Below, piece after piece: positions 44,199-45,976 of a stretch of 64,000 nt of DNA (its first letter is position 1; every line of letters starts with the position of its first letter). Under the pieces are notes generated by a model. It saw only the letters and a program-made list of their open reading frames with translations, was not told the DNA's origin and did not search any database. Both the position numbers and the translations under genes were made by a program. The stretch is from Acidimicrobiia bacterium (lineage in GTDB: Bacteria; Actinomycetota; Acidimicrobiia; Spongiisociales; ZC4RG35): the NCBI GenBank assembly GCA_028284765.1, contig JANQRA010000003.1, positions 208,500 through 272,499 on the forward strand. The letters run 5' to 3'.

Positions 44199-45593
44199 AT
44201 GGCTGTGCTCGACACATCTGACCAGCAGACCACTGTTCTCCTGATCTCGACCTACGAGATGGGTCGGCAACCGTTTGGTCTGGCTTCGCCGGCGGCTTGG
44301 CTTGGCGCAAGAGGCGCCTCGGTGACAGTCAAGGATCTCTCAGTAGAAGACGTCAGCGATGTGACACTCGCGGCATCAGGTGTCGTCGCGTTCTACTTGC
44401 CTATGCACACTGCGACCCGGCTGGCGGCTCCACTGATCGAGAGAACCCGACGCGTCAATCCCAATGCCGTGATTGCCGCGTACGGCATATACGCACCTCT
44501 GAATGACGGCTATCTGAAGCAACTCGGTGTCGACCATGTTTTTGGTGGGGAGTTCGAAGAGGGGCTCTCGGCGGTGGTTGAAGGAAGGGAACCCGAGGAA
44601 GGTCGAAAGCGGACTCGTTTCATCGTTCCCGAGCGAAATGACCTTCCTGCTCTGAGCAATTACGCCCGGCTTCGGTTTCCCGATGGAGAGACGAGAGTCG
44701 TCGGCTACACCGAGGCATCACGGGGCTGCAAGCATGAGTGTCGGCATTGCCCTGTCGTTCCCATCTATCAGGGCAGCTTCAACATCGTTCCACCGGAGGT
44801 CGTTCTCGATGACATCTCCAACCAGGTGGCAATCGGTGCCGAACACATCACGTTCGGCGACCCCGACTTCTTCAATGGCCCCGCTCATGCCGTCAGGGTC
44901 ATCGAGGGGATGAAGGGTCGGCATCCCGACGTGACCTACGACGCTGTGATCAAAGTCGAGCATCTCAAACAGCGTGCCGATCTCGTCCCGTGGCTGGCCG
45001 ACACCGGGTGTGCGTTTGTCACCACGGCTGTCGAGTCGTTCGATGATCGACTCCTCACGATTCTGGACAAGGGGCACACTGCCGCCGACTTCGAAGACGT
45101 GCTTGCCAGTGCTCGGGCTTCCGGTCTACCCATCGCTCCCACCTTCCTTGCCTTTACGCCCTGGACCACGATTGAGAGCTACGGAGCATTCTTGGAGACG
45201 ATCGAACAACTTGGGTTGGTCTCGGCGGTGTCGCCGATCCAGTACGCAATCAGGCTCCTTCTTCCGGAAGGCTCTCTCCTGCTCAGTCATCCGGACGTGG
45301 AAGCGATCACCGGATCCTTCGATTCGGAGTCGTTGGCCTATCAGTGGACTCATTCGGATCCGAGAGTCGATTCGCTCCAGGAAGATCTGTTGAAGCTGAT
45401 CAGCCATGGTCATGACGGGAGTCGGGCTGACATCTTTGAGCGGGCCTGGGCATTGGCTGCTGAACATGGGGCCGTCGAGCGGCGGGAGTCACCTTGGTCG
45501 GCAGATGTTCAGGGACTGGCGACAATTCCGTATCTCACTGAGCCCTGGTATTGCTGAGCTGAGCCCACTGACGAGCAGGTTGCTCGTATCTGA
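44199..45593 (+). CDS. radical SAM selenoprotein with Cys-Sec-Ala-Glu-Pro tail
   Basis: The frame continues through a TGA at 45555-45557: residues 449-464 read PWYC, Sec453, AEPTDEQVARI, then TGA. The protein is thus 464 rather than 452 residues. An N-terminal domain of about 130 residues resembles a cobalamin-binding fold without its His motif. Cys177, Cys181 and Cys184 in RGCKHECRHC bind the 4Fe-4S cluster that reduces S-adenosylmethionine. I recall a radical SAM family defined by a C-terminal CUAEP or CCAEP tail, and this matches it exactly. A SECIS-like hairpin follows the UGA. Substrate unknown. Confidence 0.88.
45555..45587 (+). promoter_or_regulatory. UGA selenocysteine codon and SECIS-like hairpin of the radical SAM gene
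   Basis: The UGA is at 45555-45557. After 13 nt, ACGAGCA (45571-45577) pairs perfectly with TGCTCGT (45581-45587) around GGT. The 7-bp stem, the spacing and a G at the first loop position fit a bacterial SECIS. Confidence 0.8.
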
Positions 45594-45658
45594 AACTCAC
45601 CGGGTGGCATCGTCACTAGAATCCTGACGAGGAGTTCGACTTGCTCACGGAGGCAATC

Positions 45659-45976
45659 ATGTGGGTGTTGGTCTATGCGTTTCTGTTGCTCCCCTTGGCA
45701 GCGATCACCGGGGGCATCGCCGGTGCACTCGTGGGCGGCGGCAAGGAGGACCGTCCTATTTGGCTCAACAGTCTCATCGGTTTTGGTGGTTGGACGATTG
45801 CGTGGGTAACGACGGGTTGGACCACCGGTCAATCGATGGAGGAGTTGAGTATCGGGCTGATTGTCTTTGCGGTCGCCGCTTCAGCTGTCCTCATCATGAT
45901 TGGCGAGCGGGTGAAGACTGAGTTGGTTTCCGGACAGCCGGTTCACTCAGATGGTAGGTCCGGTCAGGATTCTTGA
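45659..45976 (+). CDS. small membrane protein of unknown function
   Basis: The ATG at 45659 has GGAGG at 5-nt spacing and is preferred over a TTG at 45641. The 105-residue product has three hydrophobic segments (about 1-25, 42-60 and 68-88) and a polar tail. The glycine-rich first segment GGIAGALVGGG is the only notable pattern. The family is not recognised. It follows the radical SAM gene by 65 nt and could be co-transcribed, so a link to the selenoprotein is possible but unproven. Confidence 0.6.
   Translation: MWVLVYAFLLLPLAAITGGIAGALVGGGKEDRPIWLNSLIGFGGWTIAWVTTGWTTGQSMEELSIGLIVFAVAASAVLIMIGERVKTELVSGQPVHSDGRSGQDS

What the first reader, a model, noticed from the sequence alone, without database searches (positions are those of the whole stretch)
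44199..45593. Radical SAM selenoprotein with a CUAEP tail beyond the apparent stop
Seen: the apparent stop at 45555-45557 is preceded by TGC and followed in frame by GCT GAG CCC and eight more codons, giving Cys-Sec-Ala-Glu-Pro, then a normal stop. A perfect 7-bp hairpin with a GGT loop lies 13 nt after the UGA. Known: I recall a radical SAM family named for a C-terminal CUAEP or CCAEP tail. Inferred: this is a member, with Sec next to Cys forming a possible selenenylsulfide.
Basis: partly seen in the sequence, partly recalled or inferred. Interest (0 to 1): 0.9.

Follow-up and report, generated by a model that had tools for sequence, protein, structure and literature searches.

The report
Radical SAM selenoprotein with CUAEP tail
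This gene continues past an apparent stop codon that almost certainly encodes selenocysteine, giving a member of an already catalogued enzyme family (CUAEP/CCAEP-tail radical SAM proteins) that is often encoded next to an enzyme that joins amino acids, so it probably helps to make an unusual small molecule.

Summary
UGA 45555-45557 is followed in frame by AEPTDEQVARI and a UGA stop. The full-length protein scores 576 bits against NCBIfam NF040546, 'CUAEP/CCAEP-tail radical SAM (seleno)protein' (cut-off 500). All 80 homologues fetched carry C-X-AEP here; X is UGA in 34, UGC in 39, UGU in 7. Sec and Cys swapped at least 9-14 times on the family tree. The post-UGA hairpin is conserved with compensatory changes in UGA genes (87% of cells paired) and not in Cys genes (about 45%). 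The genome has tRNA-Sec(UCA), SelA, SelB and a SelD that is itself a selenoprotein. So it is a selenoprotein, but the family is already named. Less documented is its setting: in about half of the loci an ATP-grasp L-amino-acid ligase lies beside it, 50 of 52 related genomes with the enzyme also hold the ligase, and this genome has it unlinked. The nearest sister family is ArsL (arsinothricin biosynthesis), whose tail also has a vicinal Cys pair. I propose that it makes an unusual amino acid that the ligase couples into a dipeptide; this is inferred, not shown. The selenenylsulfide role was not testable.

The parts
44199..45593 (+). Radical SAM selenoprotein CDS, 464 aa with Sec at residue 453, stop UGA 45591-45593
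   Evidence: NF040546 at 576 bits; single copy in the genome
44727..44750 (+). Radical SAM [4Fe-4S] motif CKHECRHC, residues 177-184 (Cys177, Cys181, Cys184)
   Evidence: Invariant in 49 aligned homologues and in the ArsL alignment; PF04055 match 174-312
45552..45557 (+). Cys452 (TGC) and Sec453 (TGA) codons
   Evidence: Cys452 invariant; codon 453 is TGA, TGC or TGT in all 80 homologues
45558..45590 (+). Tail beyond the UGA, AEPTDEQVARI
   Evidence: AEP invariant in all 80 homologues
45571..45587 (+). SECIS-type hairpin ACGAGCA(GGT)TGCTCGT, loop 45578-45580
   Evidence: 87% of pair cells formed and compensatory changes in 34 UGA-form sequences; about 45% in Cys-form genes

Best explanation
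44199-45593 encodes a radical SAM selenoprotein of the known CUAEP/CCAEP-tail family. UGA 45555-45557 is decoded as Sec by SelB and tRNA-Sec(UCA), guided by the hairpin at 45571-45587 (strongly supported by sequence, about 0.97). The enzyme is related to ArsL. Inferred: it uses SAM and a [4Fe-4S] cluster (Cys177, Cys181, Cys184) to build a non-standard amino acid or similar acid, with the C-terminal Cys-Sec pair acting as a thiol/selenol reductant or as a soft ligand at the active site; a separately encoded ATP-grasp L-amino-acid ligase then joins the product to an amino acid to form a dipeptide (pathway about 0.4; exact chemistry unknown). The confidence below is for the selenoprotein and family identity together with a functional link to the ligase, not for the exact chemistry.
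For: NF040546 at 576 bits. All 80 homologues have C-X-AEP with X = UGA 34, UGC 39, UGU 7. 9-14 Sec/Cys swaps on the tree. Hairpin covariation 0 of 500 shuffles as high, slid controls lower, and absent from Cys genes. tRNA-Sec, SelA, SelB and a Sec-containing SelD in the genome. SelB in 22 of 25 UGA-form against 11 of 25 Cys-form genomes. L-amino-acid ligase adjacent in 38 of 81 loci, present in 50 of 52 relatives with the enzyme against 41 of 97 without, and in this genome. Oligopeptide symporter gene nearby in about 24 loci. ArsL is the next best family and its tail Cys-Cys aligns with Cys-Sec.
Against: No protein or product was measured. In this genome the ligase is on another contig, and the window neighbours are not conserved partners. 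The ligase also occurs in 41 relatives without the enzyme, so it may have other roles. The co-occurrence test ignores ancestry. The window protein sits on a long branch. Arsenic genes, expected if the ArsL reaction were shared, are essentially absent.
Confidence: 0.8

Rival explanations
1. The UGA is an ordinary stop; the protein ends ...EPWYC and the tail downstream is a remnant of a once longer gene.
For: The ORF callable by the standard code ends there. The hairpin is not exceptional as a single sequence.
Against: The AEP tail is invariant in 80 homologues, Cys replaces UGA in 46 of them, the hairpin covaries, and full Sec machinery is present.
Confidence: 0.02
2. [quoted passage not shown]
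For: ArsL is the nearest other family (259 bits), about 31-32% identity, and its RCCLKC tail aligns at the vicinal Cys pair. The ArsL reaction is proposed in PMC8552651.
Against: Below the ArsL cut-off (259 against 450 bits). Ars genes near 81 CUAEP loci: only three weak hits, whereas ArsL lies in an ars cluster.
Confidence: 0.08
3. The enzyme makes a 5'-deoxyadenosyl radical and works on a sugar or other small molecule like AprD4; the Cys-Sec pair is a redox centre that returns electrons (selenenylsulfide cycle), and the ligase association reflects a different final product such as an aminoacylated small molecule.
For: AprD4 is the best fold match (6fd2, E 8e-17, TM 0.68-0.70) and the best PDB sequence match. 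Adjacent Cys-Sec pairs are redox centres in thioredoxin reductases (general knowledge).
Against: The fold match is shared with many B12-type radical SAM enzymes, so it says little about the reaction; sequence is nearer to ArsL.
Confidence: 0.3

Closest known systems
NCBIfam NF040546, CUAEP/CCAEP-tail radical SAM (seleno)protein
   Same: Full-length match over the cut-off, same tail, same Sec/Cys choice
   Different: Nothing that defines the family differs; the window protein is a long branch within it
ArsL, arsinothricin biosynthesis radical SAM protein (NF040542, RCCLKC tail)
   Same: About 31-32% identity, same Rossmann-like plus radical SAM layout in the alignment, vicinal Cys pair at the C terminus, LAL-like ATP-grasp gene near two RCCLKC loci
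   Different: 259 bits against a cut-off of 450; CUAEP rather than RCCLKC tail; no ars neighbourhood
AprD4, radical SAM diol dehydratase (PDB 6fd2)
   Same: Best fold match, 17-19% identity
   Different: 27 bits against a cut-off of 500 for NF033070
BacD (alanine-anticapsin ligase) and other L-amino-acid ligases, for the partner gene
   Same: ATP-grasp_4 and LAL_C2 domains
   Different: Far below the BacD and DdaF cut-offs, so its substrates are unknown

Membership tests
NF040546 CUAEP/CCAEP-tail radical SAM (seleno)protein | Full-length score above the curated cut-off | tested here: met
   576.1 bits against 500, profile positions 1-467 of 468
NF040546 CUAEP/CCAEP-tail radical SAM (seleno)protein | C-terminal C-(U/C)-A-E-P tail | tested here: met
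   CUAEP with UGA at 45555-45557; 80 of 80 homologues share it
NF040546 CUAEP/CCAEP-tail radical SAM (seleno)protein | Radical SAM CX3CX2C motif | tested here: met
   C177, C181, C184 invariant; PF04055
Bacterial selenoprotein | Sec machinery in the genome (tRNA-Sec, SelA, SelB, SelD) | tested here: met
Bacterial selenoprotein | SECIS hairpin just after the UGA, conserved with compensation | tested here: met
   Rfam has no match
Bacterial selenoprotein | Cys in place of Sec in homologues | tested here: met
   46 of 80; 9-14 swaps
Bacterial selenoprotein | Selenium in the protein | not testable with these tools
   Needs 75Se labelling or mass spectrometry
ArsL (NF040542) | Score above the curated cut-off | tested here: not met
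   259 against 450 bits
ArsL (NF040542) | RCCLKC tail | tested here: not met
   CUAEP tail; only the vicinal pair aligns
ArsL (NF040542) | Arsenic gene neighbourhood | tested here: not met
   Only three weak hits near 81 loci; none in the window neighbours

The most novel reading that the evidence does not exclude
A widespread and so far unrecognised small-molecule pathway: a Sec- or Cys-tailed ArsL-like radical SAM enzyme makes a non-standard amino acid (possibly a 3-amino-3-carboxypropyl derivative of a soft element) and a dedicated L-amino-acid ligase turns it into a dipeptide, in Acidobacteriota, Chloroflexota, Actinomycetota and Pseudomonadota.
Probability: 0.3. Interest if true: 0.75.

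Novelty: new member of a known kind. Interest (0 to 1): 0.42.

Why it matters
The locus is a clear natural case of Sec/Cys interchange in a radical SAM enzyme, with a named family but no known function that I could find. The ligase partnership and the kinship to ArsL turn 'function unknown' into a testable two-gene hypothesis. Annotation that stops at the UGA would lose the tail, which holds the best conserved residues of the C terminus.

Tried and rejected
A single-sequence fold as proof of SECIS was rejected: z 0.11. Rfam gives no match at this place. The literature library has no paper with CUAEP, CCAEP or RCCLKC, and a 2026 selenoproteome review does not mention NF040546. The two Haft papers most likely to describe the family are not held, so earlier reports of the ligase link cannot be excluded. 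Arsenic genes near CUAEP loci were looked for and essentially not found. The position of the tail relative to the active site could not be measured, since model coordinates are not given.

Full report
Observation. The ORF 44199-45557 ends in ...TEPWYC at UGA 45555-45557. Reading on gives Sec-Ala-Glu-Pro-TDEQVARI and a UGA stop at 45591-45593. The hairpin ACGAGCA(GGU)UGCUCGU lies at 45571-45587, 13 nt after the UGA. The hairpin alone would prove nothing, because the 71-nt stretch folds like its shuffles.

Identity. With the UGA read through, the protein scores 576 bits against NCBIfam NF040546, named 'CUAEP/CCAEP-tail radical SAM (seleno)protein' (cut-off 500); the next family is ArsL, NF040542, at 259 bits (cut-off 450). 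The radical SAM cysteines 177, 181 and 184 are invariant. AlphaFold gives a confident model (pLDDT 90.8) whose best PDB match is the diol dehydratase AprD4, followed by B12-dependent radical SAM enzymes.

Is the UGA Sec? Eighty homologues from genome contigs all carry (Y/F)C-X-AEP. X is TGA in 34, TGC in 39 and TGT in 7. On a tree of the family, Sec and Cys forms are interspersed: 14 changes at least by parsimony, 9 forced by well supported branches. The pairs of the post-UGA hairpin form in 87% of cells in UGA genes (window included), with 25 double-change cells against 7.9 in shuffles and 1-14 in slid controls. In Cys genes the same columns pair in about 45% (145 of 322 cells, summed). This region is also coding (EEQ.AL), which inflates conservation but does not explain the difference between UGA and Cys genes. 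The window's genome has tRNA-Sec with anticodon UCA, SelA (417 bits), an overlapping SelB, and a SelD with its own in-frame UGA. SelB was found in 22 of 25 UGA-form genomes and 11 of 25 Cys-form genomes (Fisher p 0.002); the three UGA-form genomes without a hit are MAGs that may be incomplete.

Surroundings. In the window the neighbours are a sodium/proton exchanger-like gene, a small protein without a family match, a DJ-1/PfpI protein and a GNAT acetyltransferase; none is a conserved partner. Across the 81 loci (80 homologues and the window) one partner stands out: 38 loci have, on the same strand and mostly within 200 nt downstream, a gene for an ATP-grasp protein; two of those proteins scanned carry an LAL_C2 domain, the signature of L-amino-acid ligases. 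In four relatives of the window's genome (G139, G145, G147, G148) the same gene lies directly upstream instead (coordinates). This genome holds one such ligase (423 bits), unlinked, on another contig. In 149 relatives, 50 of 52 genomes with the radical SAM protein also hold the ligase, against 41 of 97 without it. This does not correct for ancestry, but direct adjacency in both orders in distant phyla points the same way. An oligopeptide symporter gene diverges upstream in about 24 loci.

Relation to ArsL. The C-terminal Cys-Sec pair aligns with the Cys-Cys of the ArsL tail RCCLKC (the tail alignment spans a gap, so this is suggestive). ArsL is proposed to transfer the 3-amino-3-carboxypropyl group of SAM to As(III) (PMC8552651). 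Two RCCLKC-tail loci, in Priestia and Alicyclobacillus, also have a LAL-like ATP-grasp gene nearby, distantly related to the CUAEP ligase (23-25% identity). Arsenic genes are essentially absent around CUAEP loci, so arsenic is not a supported substrate.

Mechanism proposed. Supported by sequence: radical SAM fold, Sec insertion, tail conservation, genetic association with the ligase. Inferred: the enzyme makes a non-standard amino acid from SAM or another small molecule, Cys452-Sec453 supplies electrons or holds a soft ligand, and the ligase forms a dipeptide. The choice between redox and ligand roles of the tail could not be made here.

Novelty. The family, its tail and its Sec/Cys duality are already in NCBIfam. 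The window adds a member. The ligase partnership was not found in the papers held, but the most relevant papers were not readable, so I do not claim it as new.

Noticed in passing
L097:1489-2511 (own genome, outside the window): SelD of this genome has its own in-frame UGA (HGAGUACKL) and is a second predicted selenoprotein, with hairpins in the 50 nt after the UGA.
   Followed up: partly
window 45641-45976: Small 111-aa protein just downstream, hydrophobic and membrane-like by eye, with no Pfam or NCBIfam match.
   Followed up: no
L032: The contig titled as a Bifidobacterium breve MAG carries a CUAEP-family gene that groups inside Acidobacteriota; probably a mislabelled or mixed bin.
   Followed up: no
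L154, L155, L156, L157 (Priestia and Alicyclobacillus plasmids): RCCLKC-tail (ArsL-like) loci also have a LAL-like ATP-grasp gene and a carboxymuconolactone decarboxylase family gene nearby, which hints at a further processed arsenic amino acid.
   Followed up: partly
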